NCBI GenBank assembly: GCA_944377745.1
Contig: CALWFV010000001.1
Span: 248,001-312,000, forward strand
From: an uncultured Mediterraneibacter sp.
GTDB taxonomy: Bacteria > Bacillota > Clostridia > Lachnospirales > Lachnospiraceae
DNA length: 64,000 bases
Reading direction: 5' to 3'
The position numbers and the translations under genes were made by a program. The notes below the pieces were generated by a model, which did no database searches, was not told the DNA's origin, and saw only the letters and a program-made list of their open reading frames with translations. Shown here piece after piece: positions 11,075-48,301 of the stretch (within the stretch, counting starts at the first letter, position 1; every line of letters starts with the position of its first letter).

Positions 11075-11472
11075 TCCCGGGAGAATGGCTGGAGCTTTCT
11101 GATTGAAGGAATCCGAAAACAGCGGGAATGGAAGACGTATTCGCAGGAGAGGGGCATGGGCTCCGGTTCCGTTCCGAAAGCTAAGAAAATTCTAAAAACT
11201 CTGGGAACTGACTAAAAACAATCTGCAAGGCAACACAACTCGCTTACGCTCAAACAATATTGCCTTGCAGATTAACGTCAGTTTCCAGAGTTTTAACATT
11301 TTCTATCACTTTCTCCAAAGTCACCGGAATCCCACGCCCCTCTCCTGCGAAAGGTTTTCCAGCCCACCGTTTTCTGCGCTCCCCCCAAACGGCAGTCACA
11401 GCCATACCGGCAGGATCTTCAAAAGCGAATATCCCATCTGAAATTTTTCTCCAACCGGGCCGTTCCCCCGGG
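11075..11472. repeat. Giant imperfect palindrome (about 400 bp) after the ABC permease
   Basis: Begins three bases after the permease stop. Outer arms are CCCGGGAGAATGGCTGGAG on the left and its imperfect complement ending at 11472. Middle arms are ATTCGCAGGAGAGGGGC (about 11140-11156) against GCCCCTCTCCTGCGAA on the right. Inner arms are AACTCTGGGAACTGAC and AATCTGCAAGGCAA (11197-11233) against TTGCCTTGCAGATT and GTCAGTTTCCAGAGTT (11260-11295). The turn is at about 11235-11257. The right arm carries roughly 50 extra bases. No open frame of note lies inside. Transcribed from either side it would give a very long hairpin. Confidence 0.75.
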
Positions 11473-11508
11473 AGGCAGCGCGCGTCCCTCCCAGACGGTA
11501 AGGAATCA

Positions 11509-11692
11509 CTGAGATCTGCCGGCCGGATGCACCCAGCCGGGAAGGTATGCTGCCTGAGGACCGTTAAAACAATGCCGGCACTTAGGCCGCGTCCTTTGCG
11601 GCCTTACGTGTCTGCTGCATTGTTTTCCGAGCGGGAGCGTGTCCGAGGGCAGCAAACCTCCCCGGCGGACGCCCCTCGCCCACAGATCTCAG
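11509..11692. repeat. Stop-codon-flush palindrome, copy A
   Basis: Imperfect palindrome with ends CTGAGATCTG (11509-11518) and CAGATCTCAG (11683-11692); the right end includes the stop codon of the SpoIIE-family gene. Inner arms include AAAACAATGC against GCATTGTTTT. At the tip GGCCGC and GCGGCC enclose the loop GTCCTTT. Shares its tip architecture with copies at 16859-17066, 40035-40187 and 44948-45103. Bases 11473-11508 between this and the larger palindrome hold nothing recognisable. Confidence 0.8.
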
Positions 11693-12864
11693 TAATACCT
11701 CACCGTCACTCTCTTCTCCATCTCCTCCGCAGTCCTTACCAACTGCTCCACCAGATTCTGCCTCATGCTCAGATCAAAGTTGAGTTCTGTCTCCTTGTGC
11801 GCGTCATTGACTGCCATGCCCACGAAAAGGTTCAGTTCCGTGCACTCTTCGATCAGAAGTTTTGCAAGCCGTGATGCACCGTTATCCGCATCCAGTTCAT
11901 CGAAAAATTCCGCGTCAAATTCGCCCCGGACATATTTTTTCAGAAGTTTCAGGCATTTTCCAAGGGTCAGCACACCCTCGGTGACCAGATCGATCCCGTC
12001 GATCACCGCCGTGGGCGGCACATCCGGTCCGGCAGTGCTGATCTCTGTCACGATCTTTTTTCCCAGAACCCTTGCCGCGATATTAGCGCTGGTTCCCCCG
12101 GAGATAACTTTTTTCCCCTCAGCATGCATGAAATCATATATGATCCTCTCGTCATCCGCTTTCTTTGCGGGAGGTCCGGTGAAGATGCTGACCACCCGGC
12201 GCTCGATCACTCTCGCCACCGCCACGGTGGTATCATCCCCGGGCTTCTCCTCATACAGCTCATCGCACGCCTGGCAGAGCATCACCGCAAGGCGGGATGC
12301 CGACAAGGTTTTCTTCGTACATTTCAGTGTATACTCGGACATCGCCTCCCAGGTCCAGCCCTGAAGATTCAGGATGGAACCTGCTCCTGCATAGATCACC
12401 CCGTCGCTCATCAGAGTAAAACAGTCGTTCTTTTTCACCTGGAACCTGGATTCATGGACTTTTTTCCCCTCGATCTCCCGTACCTCATATGGATATTTCA
12501 CAATCTTTCCGTCACGGATAAACACACAGGATGGATTGTCAAACTCCGCCAGATACGCCTCGCCGCTGTGAAAGATCTGAATGATACTGAAGGCGGCGTA
12601 GGCGACCTTGCGGACCTTGCAGATCGGAAGTGTCTTTGCCACGGTCTCCACGCAGGACTCGATGGATGCGCCTTCCCGGAGCATGGTCCCCAGGATCTTG
12701 GACGTCAGAGTGGCAAGGATATTCGCCTTCACCCCGCTCCCCATACCGTCCGCAAGGATCACAATATCCGAATCTTCGGTCCTGAGCACCTCCACCTTAT
12801 CGCCGCAGAGTTCCTCTCCCTGTTTGTTCAGGCTTTTCCAGGACACATCGATACTGAAACTCAT
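11689..12864 (-). CDS. SpoIIE-family PP2C-type protein phosphatase
   Basis: A 391-residue SpoIIE/PP2C-fold serine phosphatase. Metal-binding motifs are in place: LADGMGSG (Asp near residue 39), FTLMSDGVIYA near residue 152 and PGDDTTVAV near residue 206. In SpoIIE-type partner switches such enzymes dephosphorylate an anti-anti-sigma protein. The last 170 residues (from about RRVVSIFTGPP) are a separate domain I do not recognise. It starts 12 bases after the hydrogenase-like sensor HydS, so the sensor and phosphatase almost certainly form one operon; a role in transmitting an H2 or redox signal is inferred from that. Its stop codon lies inside the end of a long palindrome. Confidence 0.88.
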   Translation of the reverse strand: MSFSIDVSWKSLNKQGEELCGDKVEVLRTEDSDIVILADGMGSGVKANILATLTSKILGTMLREGASIESCVETVAKTLPICKVRKVAYAAFSIIQIFHSGEAYLAEFDNPSCVFIRDGKIVKYPYEVREIEGKKVHESRFQVKKNDCFTLMSDGVIYAGAGSILNLQGWTWEAMSEYTLKCTKKTLSASRLAVMLCQACDELYEEKPGDDTTVAVARVIERRVVSIFTGPPAKKADDERIIYDFMHAEGKKVISGGTSANIAARVLGKKIVTEISTAGPDVPPTAVIDGIDLVTEGVLTLGKCLKLLKKYVRGEFDAEFFDELDADNGASRLAKLLIEECTELNLFVGMAVNDAHKETELNFDLSMRQNLVEQLVRTAEEMEKRVTVRYY

Positions 12865-15419: not shown

Positions 15420-16859
15420 TTGAAAAAAGAATTTTCACAGGAAGAAATGGAACAGATCCTGAAAAACGACGCTGTCATCCCTGCATCTGTGGATGAAAAG
15501 ATAAAAGAAACCTATGACAGACTGGGACTGACCGCAGCCGCCCCGGAAGAGCATGACAAAGGCAGCACTTCTAAGAAAACGCGCCCGGTCCGGATGAAAA
15601 AGAAAAAGGTATGGGTCACTATCGCAGCGGCCGCCGCCCTGACTGCAGGACTTGGCATCACCGCATTCGCGGTAAACCAGTTGCTGAAAGTTGACCTGAC
15701 TGAGAAGGACGGCACGCTCGCCTACAATATCTCAGTAGATCCTGAGACAAAAGAAGCTCATATAGTCACATCGACCCCCACTTACGTTCCGGAAGGATAT
15801 AAGTACCAGGAAGAGGAACCATATGAGGGGCAGTGGCATAACAATGATACTGACGGAAACATGAGCATCATTACCCTCAACGCAGCCGACCTCTATCTGA
15901 TGTCACAGACTGACGGCGGCACATCCTCACCGATAGACAAAGGCGACTACATCAAGACAGTAGAGATCGGAGGAATGAATGTAGATCTGTTCTCTTCCGA
16001 CAGTATCCATACTGATGATGATACAATACGTCAGGATGTCATTCTCACCAACGAAGAGTACGGCTATATGATCCAGGTCTTTCTGAACGGCACTGATCTC
16101 GCTGACGATGAGGCACTGAAAGTTGCAGAAGGGCTCGATATCCAGGTGTCAGATGAAACGGTCCCCTATGCCACCGATGAAGAGATTGCGAAGATCAAAG
16201 ACGAGCAGACGGCAGATTTTGACTCGGCCTATGACAGTTCTCTCTTCTACAATGTAGGTGATGTGATCACAGATCCGCAGGATAAAGACAATAAGACAGA
16301 ATTCAAAGTAACTGACGTCAAACTTGCCGATTCCCTTCCTCTGGACCAGTTCCCGAAGGAGAATTATGTACCGGATTATGACGGCACCGTTGCCCCGCCC
16401 CTGAACGAGGACGGCACACTGAAGTCTCATGAACGGTATTCGCCCGCCAGCGGCAACCTCAGCAAGGATAATCTGGAGACCGCCGACTCAAAATTCATCG
16501 TCGCGACGGTAGAGATCACAAATACCGGAGATTCTTCCACCGAGGAATATATCACCCCCATGCTTGAGTATCTCCGCAAAGATGAGGATGGAAACTATAC
16601 AAGATTCGACATACAGTCCGCAACCGCTGCATATCAGGCTCTGAGCGTGGACGGCGAGCCCCTCTATCAGAGCGTCCAGCAGTACACGGATAACCAGAAG
16701 AAACATATACGGTTTGCCGAGATTGGCGCCGGAGAGACTCTGGAATGCACCTTTGCATGGGTGGTAGATGACGACTGCACCGACAATGCATACCTGTCCT
16801 TCTTCGATATGTACGGAGGAATGACCAACTCCTATCCAAGGGTGAAAGTGACGGAGTAG
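15420..16859 (+). CDS. DUF4179-like membrane-anchored anti-sigma factor
   Basis: About 479 residues. A cytoplasmic N-terminus (KKEFSQEEMEQILKND) with a basic patch before the membrane (TRPVRMKKKKVW) is followed by one hydrophobic segment at about residues 62-83 (VTIAAAAALTAGLGITAFAV) and a large acidic extracellular domain of about 390 residues. This is the plan of DUF4179 proteins, which pair with ECF sigma factors and hold them at the membrane. The start is TTG at 15420 with AAAGGAGG seven bases before it; an upstream ATG at 15363 lacks a ribosome site. It follows the sigma gene by 63 bases. The extracellular signal is unknown. Confidence 0.82.
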   Translation: MKKEFSQEEMEQILKNDAVIPASVDEKIKETYDRLGLTAAAPEEHDKGSTSKKTRPVRMKKKKVWVTIAAAAALTAGLGITAFAVNQLLKVDLTEKDGTLAYNISVDPETKEAHIVTSTPTYVPEGYKYQEEEPYEGQWHNNDTDGNMSIITLNAADLYLMSQTDGGTSSPIDKGDYIKTVEIGGMNVDLFSSDSIHTDDDTIRQDVILTNEEYGYMIQVFLNGTDLADDEALKVAEGLDIQVSDETVPYATDEEIAKIKDEQTADFDSAYDSSLFYNVGDVITDPQDKDNKTEFKVTDVKLADSLPLDQFPKENYVPDYDGTVAPPLNEDGTLKSHERYSPASGNLSKDNLETADSKFIVATVEITNTGDSSTEEYITPMLEYLRKDEDGNYTRFDIQSATAAYQALSVDGEPLYQSVQQYTDNQKKHIRFAEIGAGETLECTFAWVVDDDCTDNAYLSFFDMYGGMTNSYPRVKVTE

Positions 16860-17066
16860 ATTTAAATCCGCAAGTGAAGCAAAGCATCCGCCGGAGGGAC
16901 AAATTGCCTGCGGACACGTTCGCACTAGGAAAACAACGCAGCGGTACTTAGAGCGCGTCTTTTGCGCTCTTATGTACCGCTGCGCCGTTCTCCAAGCAGA
17001 AGCGGGTCTGAAGGCAATACACCTCCCCGGCGGACGCCGCCTGCTCCCTCCCGCCAATTCCAAATC
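16859..17066. repeat. Stop-codon-flush palindrome, copy B
   Basis: About 208 bp, filling the gap between the convergent anti-sigma and hydA stops. Outer arms GCATCCGCCGGAGGG (16884-16898) against CCTCCCCGGCGGACGC (17022-17037), then ATTGCCT against AGGCAAT, then AACGCAGCGGTAC (16934-16946) against GTACCGCTGCG. The tip is GAGCGC-GTCTTTT-GCGCTC. The right end touches the stop codon of hydA. Nearly the same tip occurs in copy C in opposite orientation. Confidence 0.85.
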
Positions 17067-38578: not shown

Positions 38579-38731
38579 TTTTATTTTTCTACATTTTTCT
38601 TTCTCTTTCATTCTTTCGTTATATACAAATCTTCCAACTGATATGTTATCATACTCTTTGTACACTGAAATGCATGTGTGTTCCGGTGTATCTGATAATA
38701 TTTGAAAGGAGAATTTTACAAAAGAGAATCT

Positions 38732-40030
38732 ATGCAATATACTTTTACACAACTGTTCTGGCTGCTCCTCGTTTATTCCTTCATCGGATGGATCATCGAG
38801 GCGATGGTCGGATCGATCAAAAACAGACATTTTACCAACCGCGGATTTTCCACCGGCCCCTTCTGTCTCGTCTACGGAGTCGCCGTTGTCATCATGGAAC
38901 TGACCCTGTCCGAACTGATGGACAATCCGGTCTTTCTTCTCATTGGGTGCGGACTTCAGGCAACTATCATCGAATGGATCACCGGAAAAGTCCTGGAACG
39001 GCTGAACCATCACAAGTGGTGGGATTATTCAAAAAAGAAATGGAATTTTGACGGATATATCTGTCTTCAGTACTCCCTGCTTTGGGCTGTCCTGGGCGCT
39101 GTTGCCCTCCGATACGGGAACACGTTTTTTTTCTTCCTGTACAGCCTGATCCCGACGCCTCTTCGGGATATTCTTGTATGGGGACTGGTGATCTATCTTG
39201 CGGCTGACACGCTGGTCTCCTTTACTGCCGTACTTCATCTGCAGCACGGCAGGGGACCTTCCGGCCGTCAGCACAGGAAATTTACCGTTCTGCTCTTCCG
39301 CGCTTCCCGAACCTTCATCGGTTATGTGGAACGCCGTATGGAAAAGGCCTATCCGATCATTCAGGAACGTGCCGAAGAGATCCTGAAAGAGGGGCATTTC
39401 GCGGAGGGATGCGGTTTCTACAAGCTGTTCTGGCTCTTCCTGATCGGCTCCCTTCTCGGCGATATCACGGAGACCATCTTCTGCCGGATCACTGCCGGCG
39501 TGTGGATGAGCAGGAGCAGCCTGGTATGGGGTCCGTTCAGTATCGTATGGGGCTTTGCCATCGTCCTTGCAACGATCCTCCTCTATAAAGACAGGGACAA
39601 ACCGGACCGGCATATTTTCCTCATCGGCACACTCCTGGGAGGAGCCTATGAATATATGTGCAGTGTTCTGGGCGAGCTTGTCTTCGGTCAGGTCTTCTGG
39701 GATTACAGCGAGATTCCCTTTAATCTGGGCGGAAGGGTCAACCTTCTGTACTGTTTCTTCTGGGGAATCGCGGCCGTTGTCTGGATCAAGGGGCTGTATC
39801 CTCATTTTTCAAAATGGATCGAGAAGATCCCGAAACTGACCGGATACATAGCCTCCTGGATCCTGATCGTGTTCATGACCGCGGACCTGATGGTCTCCGC
39901 GGCGGCGCTGATCCGTTATGACCAGAGAGCGGGCGGCCCTCCTGCCATAAGCGGCTGGGAACAGGTCATAGATACGAATTTTGACGATGCGAAGATGAAG
40001 CAGATTTATCCCAATGCGAAGTTCAGATAA
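38732..40030 (+). CDS. CmpB-family membrane protein with internal duplication
   Basis: About 432 residues, PF06541 (ABC_trans_CmpB, 'putative ABC-transporter type IV') class. The domain occurs twice: FWLLLVYSFIGWIIEAMVGS with FSTGPFCLVYGVAVVIM in the first half, and FWLFLIGSLLGDITETIFC with SLVWGPFSIVWGFAIVLA in the second, each followed by WDYS-type blocks and more hydrophobic spans; about eight to ten membrane segments in all. No ABC ATPase adjoins, so the transporter name is doubtful; function unknown. The start at 38732 gives MQYTFTQLF; a TTG at 38702 is an alternative. Confidence 0.8.
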   Translation: MQYTFTQLFWLLLVYSFIGWIIEAMVGSIKNRHFTNRGFSTGPFCLVYGVAVVIMELTLSELMDNPVFLLIGCGLQATIIEWITGKVLERLNHHKWWDYSKKKWNFDGYICLQYSLLWAVLGAVALRYGNTFFFFLYSLIPTPLRDILVWGLVIYLAADTLVSFTAVLHLQHGRGPSGRQHRKFTVLLFRASRTFIGYVERRMEKAYPIIQERAEEILKEGHFAEGCGFYKLFWLFLIGSLLGDITETIFCRITAGVWMSRSSLVWGPFSIVWGFAIVLATILLYKDRDKPDRHIFLIGTLLGGAYEYMCSVLGELVFGQVFWDYSEIPFNLGGRVNLLYCFFWGIAAVVWIKGLYPHFSKWIEKIPKLTGYIASWILIVFMTADLMVSAAALIRYDQRAGGPPAISGWEQVIDTNFDDAKMKQIYPNAKFR

Positions 40031-40034
40031 ATGA

Positions 40035-40187
40035 ATATAAGACATGCGAAGGTAGAGGGGTTCCCTCCCGGACTCATTTTCATTCGGAGTTCAGCGCAGC
40101 GGTACATAAGAGCGCAAAAGACGCGCTCAAAGTGCCGGCGCTGCCCTACGGTCCGGGAGGGAGCCCCTCTTCCTGCTCGTTTATATC
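40035..40187. repeat. Stop-codon-flush palindrome, copy C (tip inverted)
   Basis: Outer arms GAGGGGTTCCCTCCCGGA (40055-40072) against TCCGGGAGGGAGCCCCTC, begun by a weak AATATAAG/TTTATAT pairing that starts five bases after the CmpB-like stop. The tip GAGCGC-AAAAGAC-GCGCTC is copy B's tip read on the other strand (GTCTTTT loop), flanked by AGCGGTAC and GTGCCGGCGCTG. It lies between convergent genes. Confidence 0.82.
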
Positions 40188-44947: not shown

Positions 44948-45103
44948 GAGAAAAAAGAAGCCAGGGCAGAGGTTTCCATCAAAGGCCGAAGAGCAGCGCC
45001 AGCACTTGGGCTGCGTCTTTTGCAGCCCTATGTACTGTTGCGCTGCGGCCCGAGCGCAAGCGTGCCTGCGATGGAAATCTCTGTCCTGGCGGACTATTTC
45101 TTA
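44948..45103. repeat. Stop-codon-flush palindrome, copy D
   Basis: Arms GCCAGGGCAGAGGTTTCCATC (split: GCCAGGGCAGAG then GTTTCCATC, 44960-44980) against GATGGAAATCTCTGTCCTGGC (45070-45090), with weaker AAAAAAGAA / TATTTCTTA ends; the right end includes the carB stop codon. Tip: GGGCTGC-GTCTTTT-GCAGCCC, inside CAGCGCCAGCACTT and TATGTACTGTTGCGCTG. The stem differs from copies A-C but remains paired. Confidence 0.82.
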
Positions 45104-48100
45104 CACCGTCGCAATATCGATCAATGTAAGTTTCTTAATATCTGTATTCTCAAGACTGGTGATCAGCGCCTCCGCCGTATCAATGGCTGTCAGCACGTTC
45201 ACGCCTGTCTCGATGGCGTTTCTCCGGATGACAAATCCGTCTCTGGAGTGCTCTGCTCCCTGTGCCGGAATATCGATGACAAGATCGATCTTGTGTCCCA
45301 GGATCAGGTCCAGAAGGTTCGGTGACTCCTGCTCGATCTTGCGGACCGGAGTCGCCTTCACGCCCGCCTCGTTCAGGGCGCGCGCTGTTCCGCTTGTAGC
45401 AAAAATATGATAGCCGATGTTGGCAAATCTGCGTCCGATCTCCACTGCTTCCGGCTGGTCCTCATCGCGGACTGTCATGATCATATTCTTGAACCTGGGC
45501 AGCTTGATACCTGCGCCGAGGAACGCTTTATAAAGCGCCTCGTCGAAGGTCTTTGCAATGCCAAGGCATTCTCCGGTAGACTTCATCTCAGGTCCCAGGC
45601 TGATATCAGCGCCCCGGATCTTCTCAAAGGAGAATACCGGCATCTTGACTGCCACATAGTCTGCCTCCGGCTGAAGTCCCGGTGTGTAGCCCAGTTCTCT
45701 GATCTTCTTTCCGATGATGACCTGTGCCGCCAGGGGAACGATCGGGATACCTGTCACCTTGCTGATATACGGCACGGTACGGCTGGAGCGGGGATTAACC
45801 TCGATCACATACACGTCCTCCTCGCCGCAGACGATGAACTGGATGTTGATCATACCGATGACATGGAGGGATTTTGCAAGCCGTCTTGTGTACTCCGCGA
45901 TCTTTGCCTTTGCTCCCTGTGTCAGGCTCTGAGCCGGATAAACGGAGATACTGTCACCGGAATGGATCCCCGCGCGCTCAATATGCTCCATGATGCCCGG
46001 GATCAGGATATCGGTTCCGTCGCACACCGCATCCACCTCGATCTCCCTGCCCTGAAGGTATTTATCCACAAGAATCGGATGATCCTGCGCGATCCGGTTG
46101 ATGATGCCGATGAACTGATCGATATCATTGTCGTTGATTGCGATCTGCATGCCCTGACCGCCCAGCACGTAGGACGGGCGCACCAGTACCGGATAGCCAA
46201 GGCGGTTTGCGACCTCTTTTGCTTCCTCTGCGGTAAATACTGTGCCTCCTGTCGGGCGCGGGATCTGGCACTCTTCCAGAATCTCGTCAAAGAGTTCTCT
46301 GTCCTCCGCCTTATCCACATTCTCCGCGGAGGTTCCAAGGATCGGCACGCCCATCTTCATGAGCGCCTCTGTCAGCTTGATGGCTGTCTGCCCGCCGAAC
46401 TGTACCACAGCGCCGTCCGGCTTCTCGATGTCAACAATGCTCTCCACATCCTCCGGTGTGAGAGGCTCAAAATACAGCTTGTCTGCGATATCGAAGTCTG
46501 TACTTACGGTCTCCGGGTTGTTGTTCACGATGATCGTCTCATACCCTTCTTTTGCGAACGACCAGGTACAGTGCACGGAACAGAAGTCGAACTCGATTCC
46601 CTGTCCGATACGGATCGGGCCGGAACCTAGGACAAGAACTTTCTTCTTTCCTGAAGTCTCCTCCACCTCATTTTCGCTTCCGTATACAGAATAGTAATAA
46701 GGCGTCTCCGCCGCGAACTCTGCCGCACAGGTGTCAACGATCTTGTACGCTGCAACGATGCCGTTTTCATGGCGAATATCGTGGATCTCACGTTCACTCT
46801 TTCCTGTCAGGCGTGCAATCACATTGTCCGGAAACTCGATCCGTTTTGCTTCCTTAAGAAGCTCCGGCGTGAGTTCCTCGTTCTTCAGCGCATTCTCCAT
46901 CTCCACAATGATGGCGATCTTGTCGATGAACCAGCGGTCGATCTTCGTGATATTGTAAATGGTATCGTAGTCGATGCCCCTGCGGACAGCCTCGGCGATC
47001 CTCCAGATACGCATGTCATCCACGATCGCGAGCTGCTCGATCAGATCCTCTCTGGAAAGTCCTGTGAAGTCATAGGACATCAGGCTGTCCACATGCTGCT
47101 CCAGAGAGCGGATCGCTTTCATGAGCGCTCCCTCAAAGTTGTTGCAGATACTCATGACCTCTCCGGTCGCCTTCATCTGCGTTGTCAGCGTTCTCTTGGC
47201 GCTGATGAACTTGTCAAACGGAAGTCTCGGCATCTTCACGACCACATAGTCCAGCATAGGCTCGAAACTTGCATACGTTTTCTGCGTGATCGCATTCTTG
47301 ATCTCGTCCAGCGTATAGCCGAGGGCGATCTTCGCAGCCACCTTGGCGATCGGGTATCCTGTCGCCTTGGACGCCAGCGCGGAAGAACGACTGACACGGG
47401 GATTTACCTCGATGACACAGTATTCAAAGGAATCCGGGTTCAGCGCGTACTGCACGTTGCATCCTCCGGTGATATTCAGCTCGCTGATGATGTTCAGCGC
47501 GGAAGTACGGAGCATCTGGTACTCCTTGTCACCCAGCGTCTGGGACGGAGCCACAACGATCGAATCTCCCGTATGAACGCCCACAGGGTCAATGTTTTCC
47601 ATATTACAAACCGTGATGCAGTTGCCGGCGCTGTCGCGCATTACTTCATACTCGATCTCTTTCCAGCCTGCAATGCAGCGCTCTACCAGTACCTGACCCA
47701 CGCGGGACAGTCTCAGGCCGTTCTCCAGGATCTCCACAAGCTGATGGGAATCGTGTGCGATCCCGCCTCCGCTTCCGCCCAGCGTATACGCCGGGCGGAG
47801 TACGACAGGGTAGCCGATCTTGTTCGCAAACGCAAGTCCGTCGTCCACATTCTCCACGACAAGGGACGCCGCTACGGGCTCGCCGATCTTCTCCATAGTC
47901 GCCTTGAACTCCAGACGGTCCTCGGCCTTCTTAATGGTCTCTGACGTTGTTCCGATGAGACGCACTCCGTTTTCCTTCAGGAAACCTGCCTCCTCCAGCT
48001 CCATGGCAAGGTTCAGCCCTGCCTGTCCTCCCAGAGTCGGGAGCACGCTGTCCGGTTTTTCCTTGAGGATGAGCTGTTCCACCACCTCAACCGTCAGCGG

Positions 48101-48301
48101 CTCGATATAGACACGGTCCGCAATATCTTTATCCGTCATGATGGTCGCCGGGTTGGAGTTCAGCAGAACGACCTCAAGTCCTTCCTCCTTCAGGGAACGG
48201 CACGCCTGTGTTCCTGCGTAGTCGAACTCTGCTGCCTGTCCGATGACGATCGGACCGGAACCGATGACCAGTACTTTCTTTATACTTAAATCTCTAGGCA
48301 T
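45101..48301 (-). CDS. carB: Carbamoyl-phosphate synthase large subunit
   Basis: A 1066-residue CarB with two homologous ATP-grasp halves: KKVLVIGSGPIVIGQAAEFD at the N-terminus and KKVLVLGSGPIRIGQGIEFD at about residue 553, each followed by biotin-carboxylase-like ATP-grasp blocks (GGSGGGIAHD; GGQGMQIA) and a C-terminal MGS-like allosteric domain (YHIFATSGTARALNEAG) that responds to UMP/ornithine-type effectors. It makes carbamoyl phosphate from ammonia delivered by CarA for arginine and pyrimidine synthesis. Start and carA stop share one base (TAATG). The stop lies in a long palindrome. Confidence 0.97.
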   Translation of the reverse strand: MPRDLSIKKVLVIGSGPIVIGQAAEFDYAGTQACRSLKEEGLEVVLLNSNPATIMTDKDIADRVYIEPLTVEVVEQLILKEKPDSVLPTLGGQAGLNLAMELEEAGFLKENGVRLIGTTSETIKKAEDRLEFKATMEKIGEPVAASLVVENVDDGLAFANKIGYPVVLRPAYTLGGSGGGIAHDSHQLVEILENGLRLSRVGQVLVERCIAGWKEIEYEVMRDSAGNCITVCNMENIDPVGVHTGDSIVVAPSQTLGDKEYQMLRTSALNIISELNITGGCNVQYALNPDSFEYCVIEVNPRVSRSSALASKATGYPIAKVAAKIALGYTLDEIKNAITQKTYASFEPMLDYVVVKMPRLPFDKFISAKRTLTTQMKATGEVMSICNNFEGALMKAIRSLEQHVDSLMSYDFTGLSREDLIEQLAIVDDMRIWRIAEAVRRGIDYDTIYNITKIDRWFIDKIAIIVEMENALKNEELTPELLKEAKRIEFPDNVIARLTGKSEREIHDIRHENGIVAAYKIVDTCAAEFAAETPYYYSVYGSENEVEETSGKKKVLVLGSGPIRIGQGIEFDFCSVHCTWSFAKEGYETIIVNNNPETVSTDFDIADKLYFEPLTPEDVESIVDIEKPDGAVVQFGGQTAIKLTEALMKMGVPILGTSAENVDKAEDRELFDEILEECQIPRPTGGTVFTAEEAKEVANRLGYPVLVRPSYVLGGQGMQIAINDNDIDQFIGIINRIAQDHPILVDKYLQGREIEVDAVCDGTDILIPGIMEHIERAGIHSGDSISVYPAQSLTQGAKAKIAEYTRRLAKSLHVIGMINIQFIVCGEEDVYVIEVNPRSSRTVPYISKVTGIPIVPLAAQVIIGKKIRELGYTPGLQPEADYVAVKMPVFSFEKIRGADISLGPEMKSTGECLGIAKTFDEALYKAFLGAGIKLPRFKNMIMTVRDEDQPEAVEIGRRFANIGYHIFATSGTARALNEAGVKATPVRKIEQESPNLLDLILGHKIDLVIDIPAQGAEHSRDGFVIRRNAIETGVNVLTAIDTAEALITSLENTDIKKLTLIDIATV

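What the first reader, a model, noticed from the sequence alone, without database searches (positions are those of the whole stretch)
16859..17066. A family of long palindromes with a shared, covarying tip
Four copies (11509-11692, 16859-17066, 40035-40187, 44948-45103) carry a tip of the form stem-GTC(T/C)TTT-stem flanked by CACTT or TACTT on one side and TA(T/C)GT on the other. The stems differ but stay paired: GGCCGC/GCGGCC, GAGCGC/GCGCTC (B and C), GGGCTGC/GCAGCCC. The outer arms are unrelated between most copies yet each is self-complementary. Paired changes with a fixed loop imply selection for the fold. It could be a non-coding RNA, a terminator-like end structure, a MITE or a protein-binding cruciform. 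I cannot match it to a class I know.
Basis: partly seen in the sequence, partly recalled or inferred. Interest (0 to 1): 0.8.

Follow-up and report, generated by a model that had tools for sequence, protein, structure and literature searches.

The report
Mobile hairpins with a conserved core
The four palindromes belong to a family of small hairpin-shaped DNA elements in gut bacteria of the Lachnospiraceae that seem to have spread as minimal transposons and that, unusually, keep a folded middle rather than their ends unchanged.

Summary
The own genome holds 28 copies. A covariance model finds it in 25 of 37 genomes of the genus (Mediterraneibacter, from record titles) and 0 of 24 genomes of other families. 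A second model finds 1-84 copies in each of 16 further genomes chosen because they carry it.

The conserved unit is a core of about 110 nt: 36 of 41 pairs have both-side changes, and a side hairpin is capped by GNRA in 98 of 100 four-base loops. In a Butyrivibrio genome whole elements are about 200-nt palindromes with fixed ends (GTTACAATTCAG) and 8-bp target duplications; a copy in another Lachnospiraceae genome shows the same. I read it as a MITE-like transposon family whose interior, not its ends, is conserved.

In Mediterraneibacter the copies are old, often just past stop codons, and cores diverge less than arms or flanks. Rfam and the phage, plasmid and viral-contig searches found no match. 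No transposase was found, and what the core does is unknown; an RNA role is my best guess.

The parts
11494..11707 (+). Copy A, whole inverted repeat including outer arms that reach into the last codons of the gene 11689-12864(-)
   Evidence: inverted repeat I2, arms 11494-11542 and 11659-11707; fold; sequence
11546..11656 (+). Copy A, conserved core (tip 11580-11609, GNRA loop GGGA at 11633-11636)
   Evidence: R1 112.8 bits; tip
16859..17066 (+). Copy B, whole element; atypical, left arm resembles an inverted right arm
   Evidence: fold, comparison with the G063 orthologue
16900..17021 (+). Copy B, core (tip 16946-16975)
   Evidence: R1 60.1 bits on +, 30.7 on -
40035..40187 (-). Copy C, whole element, just after the stop codon of 38702-40030(+)
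   Evidence: fold, sequence
40058..40166 (-). Copy C, core (tip 40104-40133)
   Evidence: R1 103.8 bits
44948..45103 (+). Copy D, whole element, just after the stop codon of carB (45101-48301, -)
   Evidence: fold; carB identity
44971..45079 (+). Copy D, core (tip 45004-45033)
   Evidence: R1 103.6 bits

Best explanation
Old copies of a Lachnospiraceae-wide family of non-autonomous mobile DNA elements of MITE type with a conserved folded interior. Shown: young copies are whole-length palindromes of about 190-200 nt with fixed ends (GTTAC..TTCAG) and 8-bp target duplications between unrelated flanks. Inferred: a transposase supplied in trans cuts and joins the ends. Shown: the most conserved part is an interior core of about 110 nt with covarying stems, a fixed loop, asymmetric internal loops and a GNRA-capped side hairpin on one strand. 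Shown: in Mediterraneibacter copies sit at orthologous sites, and cores diverge less than arms and flanks. Inferred: the core folds, as RNA in transcripts crossing it (my estimate 0.5) or as single-stranded DNA (0.3), and is bound by an unidentified protein, which serves the element's spread, a host function at kept copies, or both.
For: Termini: 152 end sites in G084 against 1 for the reversed pattern. Target duplications: 14 of 47 candidates agree at 6 or more of 8 positions, shuffled mean 0.76, maximum 5. L404: ends GTTACTGTTAAG/GTTACTGTTCAG and duplication AAGCAGTC. Dispersal: copies with shared arms and unrelated flanks. Core: 36 of 41 pairs with both-side changes; GNRA in 98 of 100 four-base loops, 7 of 8 types. 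Constraint in place: core 8.1%, arms 13.7%, flanks 13.7% divergence over 22 orthologous pairs; core below arm in 19, below flank in 16.
Against: No transposase was tied to the ends. Target duplications are not detectable in Mediterraneibacter: 0 of 20 in G029 and 0 of 28 in G000. The Eisenbergiella copies read have unique arms, not shared ends. Short derivatives without the core exist in G084 and some have flank repeats, so the core may not be needed for insertion. The orthologue sample was found by the model and so favours conserved cores. Position relative to genes differs between genera.
Confidence: 0.68

Rival explanations
1. A host regulatory or stabilising RNA element of untranslated regions, kept for its effect on mRNA, with dispersal incidental.
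For: In 71 of 137 rows an opposite-strand gene ends 0-75 nt from the 3' side of the core; orthologous retention; lower core divergence; GNRA loops.
Against: Fixed ends and target duplications. Neighbouring genes share no function that I could see. In Mediterraneibacter the GNRA strand is usually antisense to the abutting gene. In G084 I read 0 of 14 copies as convergent and 7 as divergent.
Confidence: 0.15
2. An intrinsic terminator with an ornate tip: the arms are the terminator stem and the core sits in its loop.
For: At carB the outer stem is followed by a T run in the mRNA sense, and species without the core keep a plain terminator there.
Against: Flanks outside the stem are not T-rich in general; several copies are followed by a separate terminator-like hairpin; many arms are far longer than terminator stems.
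Confidence: 0.05
3. Paired changes arise from template switching in long palindromes and need no selection for the fold.
For: Copy B has an arm remade from an inverted copy. G-T pairs are rare in the core, 1.6%. Eisenbergiella copies read have near-perfect arms that differ from copy to copy. A's outer repeat copies the end of a gene.
Against: The core's asymmetric features (side hairpin on one strand, internal loops) recur across genera although such copying would erase them, as in B; cores diverge less than flanks.
Confidence: 0.07
4. REP-like repeats moved by a REP-associated tyrosine transposase (RAYT).
For: A RAYT-like gene (Y1 domain, frames of about 245-310 aa) is in 19 of 25 genus genomes with the element and 4 of 12 without (my count); a fragment matches NCBIfam REP_Tyr_transpos below its cut-off.
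Against: None of 14 RAYT-like loci read holds the core; 11 of the 14 carry another short palindrome with CTACGTCCC. Genomes with the element and no such gene exist (e.g. G036 has no Y1 match). The element is far larger than a REP and leaves 8-bp duplications. The correlation may only reflect kinship.
Confidence: 0.05

Closest known systems
MITEs of prokaryotes, e.g. QMITE2 of Coxiella burnetii (review PMC10969869, passages read)
   Same: Short, no visible gene, terminal inverted repeats, 7-9 bp direct repeats (8 bp here), intergenic, many copies, transcript predicted to fold
   Different: Here the interior is the conserved part and covaries across genera, while arms change between lineages; no parent IS identified
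REP/BIME repeats with RAYT (PMC12306157 passages and PMC2817692 listing seen)
   Same: Intergenic palindromes near gene ends, dispersed, pairs in opposite orientation
   Different: About 200 nt, target duplications, core absent from 14 RAYT-like loci
Intrinsic terminators
   Same: At carB the arms plus T run form one
   Different: No general T run, conserved tip and asymmetric core
Palindromic candidate structured RNAs of human microbiomes (PMC8040213, passages read)
   Same: 250 palindromic candidates, 230 of them predicted terminators; this element could be among them
   Different: Supplement not available here, so overlap untested; the main text does not name Lachnospiraceae

Membership tests
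MITE (non-autonomous DNA transposon) | Short, dispersed, multi-copy, without a transposase gene | tested here: met
   about 190-200 nt full length (12 of 47 candidates exactly 201 nt); 28 copies in own genome
MITE (non-autonomous DNA transposon) | Fixed terminal inverted repeats | tested here: met
   in G084 and copy L404 of G091; not clear in the window's genome
MITE (non-autonomous DNA transposon) | Target site duplication | tested here: met
   8 bp in G084, 14 of 47 against shuffled mean 0.76 and in L404; not detectable in G029 (0 of 20) and G000 (0 of 28)
MITE (non-autonomous DNA transposon) | Ends shared with an autonomous IS | tested here: inconclusive
   no autonomous copy recognised beside 20 lone-end stretches, ORFs viewed by eye only; IS66 absent in 4 of 8 genomes
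REP with RAYT | Repeat flanks the RAYT gene | tested here: not met
   0 of 14 RAYT-like loci contain the core
Intrinsic terminator | GC stem directly followed by a T run | tested here: not met
   met at carB but not in general
Known Rfam RNA family | Score above the family's gathering cut-off | tested here: not met
   0 matches in the window and in 17 loci; on copy A only two matches, both below cut-off
Structured non-coding RNA | Covariation supporting the fold | tested here: met
   0 of 500 shuffles reach any of the five measures; does not tell RNA from DNA
Structured non-coding RNA | Transcribed and acting as RNA | not testable with these tools
   no expression data; GNRA loops are suggestive, GNRA-like DNA loops are also known (recalled)

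The most novel reading that the evidence does not exclude
An inside-out transposon family: a folded nucleic-acid domain of about 110 nt, a new RNA or single-stranded DNA motif, is the true hereditary unit. It is carried by changing ends and arms across a bacterial family, is recognised by a dedicated unknown protein, and has been kept at many host gene ends for a function.
Probability: 0.35. Interest if true: 0.85.

Novelty: new variant of a known kind. Interest (0 to 1): 0.6.

Why it matters
A repeat with up to 84 copies in a genome of common gut bacteria matched no Rfam family and nothing in the phage, plasmid or viral-contig searches made. If its core is a working RNA or DNA fold, it points to an unknown binding protein and to an unusual way for a minimal transposon to persist. 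It also shows that long palindromes with unrelated arms can be one family, visible only to a structure model.

Tried and rejected
Rfam: nothing above cut-off in the window, on copy A or in 17 loci. RAYT as partner: not supported, although it is commoner in genomes with the element (19 of 25 against 4 of 12). Reverse transcriptase as partner: genomes with many copies and no RVT_1 match exist, e.g. G012 with 40 copies and G002 with 18. IS66, thought of because of 8-bp duplications (recalled): no match in 4 of 8 genomes; 6 of the 10 loci fetched were read and show no GTTAC..TTCA motif. Autonomous copy beside lone ends in G084: none recognised by eye in 20 stretches; no family search of those ORFs was made. 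Terminator as the general identity: not met. One uniform 3'-UTR role: weakened by the different positions in G084. Clustering of neighbouring genes gave no common mobile gene; the largest cluster is ileS. Target duplications in G029 and G000: none detected. Viral contigs, plasmids, phages: no match; the viral scan was an exact tip pattern, the other two a BLAST with copy A only. Literature: seven searches listed no description of this element; only listings and passages of three papers were seen, in an open-licence library.

Full report
Observation. The tip pattern matches 4 times in the window and 0 times in 100 shuffles. In the own genome it matches 15 times; the control pattern read backwards matches 6 times. 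All four stretches fold much better than shuffles. The 15 own-genome copies share far more than a tip: a core of about 110 nt, and arms GCCCAGCCGG...CCGGCGGAC related in most copies. RNAalifold gives 48 pairs, 35 with both-side changes. Covariance model R1 finds 28 elements in the own genome; the other 6 of its 34 rows are 3 opposite-strand echoes and 3 short partial hits.

Anatomy, on the strand that carries the GNRA loop: arm; GGACCG; AAAAC..GCCGG; YACTT; variable stem; loop GUNYUUU; stem; TAYGTR (or TAGTA in a shorter subfamily); CCGCTGC; GTTTT; CCGAGC-GNRA-GCGTGTCC; arm. All 80 match R1, as expected because they carry the tip pattern, with 102 matches. On these, 36 of 41 pairs have both-side changes, 93.4% of cells pair, and slid versions pair in 27-48%. 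The side-hairpin loop is GNRA in 98 of 100 four-base loops, with 7 of the 8 possible sequences. That is an RNA signature, though GNRA-like DNA loops are also known (recalled). G-T pairs make up 1.6% of standard pairs in the core and 8.1% in the inner arm.

Distribution. R1 matches 25 of 61 genomes, all in the window's genus (25 of 37, 0-48 copies per genome); none of 24 genomes of other families matched, under the stricter filters used for large sets. Record titles of similar stretches name mostly Mediterraneibacter and other Lachnospiraceae, among them Acetatifactor, Butyrivibrio and Eisenbergiella. In 16 genomes chosen because they carry a match, R2 finds 1 to 84 copies each; 15 of the 16 titles name Lachnospiraceae or a genus that I place there, one says Clostridiaceae. 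The viral-contig pattern scan and the plasmid and phage BLAST searches found nothing.

Mobility. In G084 (Butyrivibrio sp. RUI181, 84 copies) elements are near-perfect palindromes bounded by GTTACAATTCAG and its complement, between unrelated flanks. The end pattern has 152 sites against 1 for the reversed pattern. Of 47 end-bounded candidates, some of them spurious pairings, 12 are exactly 201 nt, and 14 have flanking 8-mers agreeing at 6 or more of 8 positions; shuffled mean 0.76, maximum 5 in 2000 shuffles. Four are perfect: CGCGAAAC (a 52-nt candidate), CAGTAACT, TCATAGAA and TTTGTTAG. Copy L404 of G091 (Lachnospiraceae bacterium Lab288P1bin41) has ends GTTACTGTTAAG and GTTACTGTTCAG, 193 nt apart, and a perfect duplication AAGCAGTC. 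So ends of the form GTTAC..TTCAG occur in two distinct genomes. In Ca. M. stercoripullorum and a related uncultured Mediterraneibacter 8 copies (6 and 2) share arms with TGTTCAG near the ends and have unrelated flanks; 0 of 20 copies of G029 have a detectable duplication. Some G084 copies are short derivatives without the core (e.g. L357, L366), and two have a lengthened tip that I read as multiplied (L359, L360). No transposase was tied to the ends.

Old copies in Mediterraneibacter. At the A locus 6 of 30 fetched orthologous loci have the element (G000, G063, G072, G066, G007, G002); at carB 8 of 30 (one further match there lies about 500 nt away). Species without a copy show an ordinary terminator, a different sequence, or what looks like a stub left by deletion (L219 at A; L228 and L237 at carB). 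Of 30 G063 copies tested (of 31 found), 7 have no flank match or only a weak one among the G000 copies. At rnfB, G000 keeps only a truncated second copy. Over 22 mapped G000-G063 pairs, cores differ at 8.1% of positions, adjacent 40-nt arms at 13.7% and flanks, which include coding sequence, at 13.7%; the core is lower than the arm in 19 and lower than the flank in 16. Exceptions show a much-changed core, B among them. In the 17 pairs used for pair counting, 38 of 692 core pairs and 114 of 461 arm pairs changed; 18 and 70 of these are broken. So arms drift while cores are held. These copies were found by the model, which favours conserved cores.

Position. In 137 element rows (5 with a repeated core sequence; window, own genome and fetched loci) the gene on the 3' side is on the opposite strand in 83, 71 of them with the gene end 0-75 nt from the core; it is on the same strand in 31; in 9 none was called; in 14 the element lay inside a called frame. 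On the 5' side the median distance is 347 nt. Gene calls are from a simple codon score. In G084, of 14 copies with genes on both sides (top-scoring ones, not a random sample), I read 7 as divergent, 5 as tandem sense, 2 as tandem antisense and 0 as convergent. Position is therefore lineage-specific.

Mechanism. I commit to spread as a MITE by a transposase in trans acting on the ends (duplications shown, enzyme inferred), with the folded core bound by an unidentified protein (inferred), as RNA (0.5), as single-stranded DNA (0.3) or neither (0.2). Conservation of an asymmetric core in fixed copies is what an ordinary dead MITE would not show.

Comparison. It meets the size, end and duplication criteria of a MITE in young copies; a parent IS is not shown. 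It fails the flank test for REP with RAYT and is not an intrinsic terminator as a family. I found no described family with this core; that rests on Rfam 15 and on seven paper searches of an open-licence library.

Noticed in passing
window 11176-11313: Another long hairpin with the motif AACTCGCTTACGCTCAAACAA, 1 match in the window and 0 in shuffles; a related motif is in 12 of 474 loci, mostly the same locus in relatives. Similar hairpins seem to follow other genes (e.g. L242, L253).
   Followed up: partly
window 16900-17021: Copy B has its left arm replaced by what looks like an inverted right arm, while the G063 orthologue is normal and flanks are 99% identical: a natural template-switch or conversion event.
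   Followed up: partly
window 11494-11519 and 11683-11707: The far arm of copy A is an inverted copy, with mismatches, of the neighbouring gene's last codons; a diverged form is seen in G007.
   Followed up: partly
L136, L130, L141, L066 and others: A pair of elements in opposite orientation often lies in the leader of ileS; 12 loci cluster there, ileS named by TIGR00392 in L136.
   Followed up: partly
L422, L424-L433: RAYT-like genes at what looks like one syntenic site, flanked by short palindromes with CTACGTCCC, perhaps their own REP.
   Followed up: partly
L016, L020, L025 upstream flanks: A companion hairpin GGGAGCAGCGCCC..GGGCGCG..CCTCCC lies 5' of many own-genome copies; the exact form is absent from the window.
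   Followed up: no
L359 and L360: Two Butyrivibrio copies have a lengthened tip that looks like tandem tip hairpins.
   Followed up: no
L349, L411-L414: Eisenbergiella copies have near-perfect arms of about 30 nt or more, unique to each copy.
   Followed up: partly
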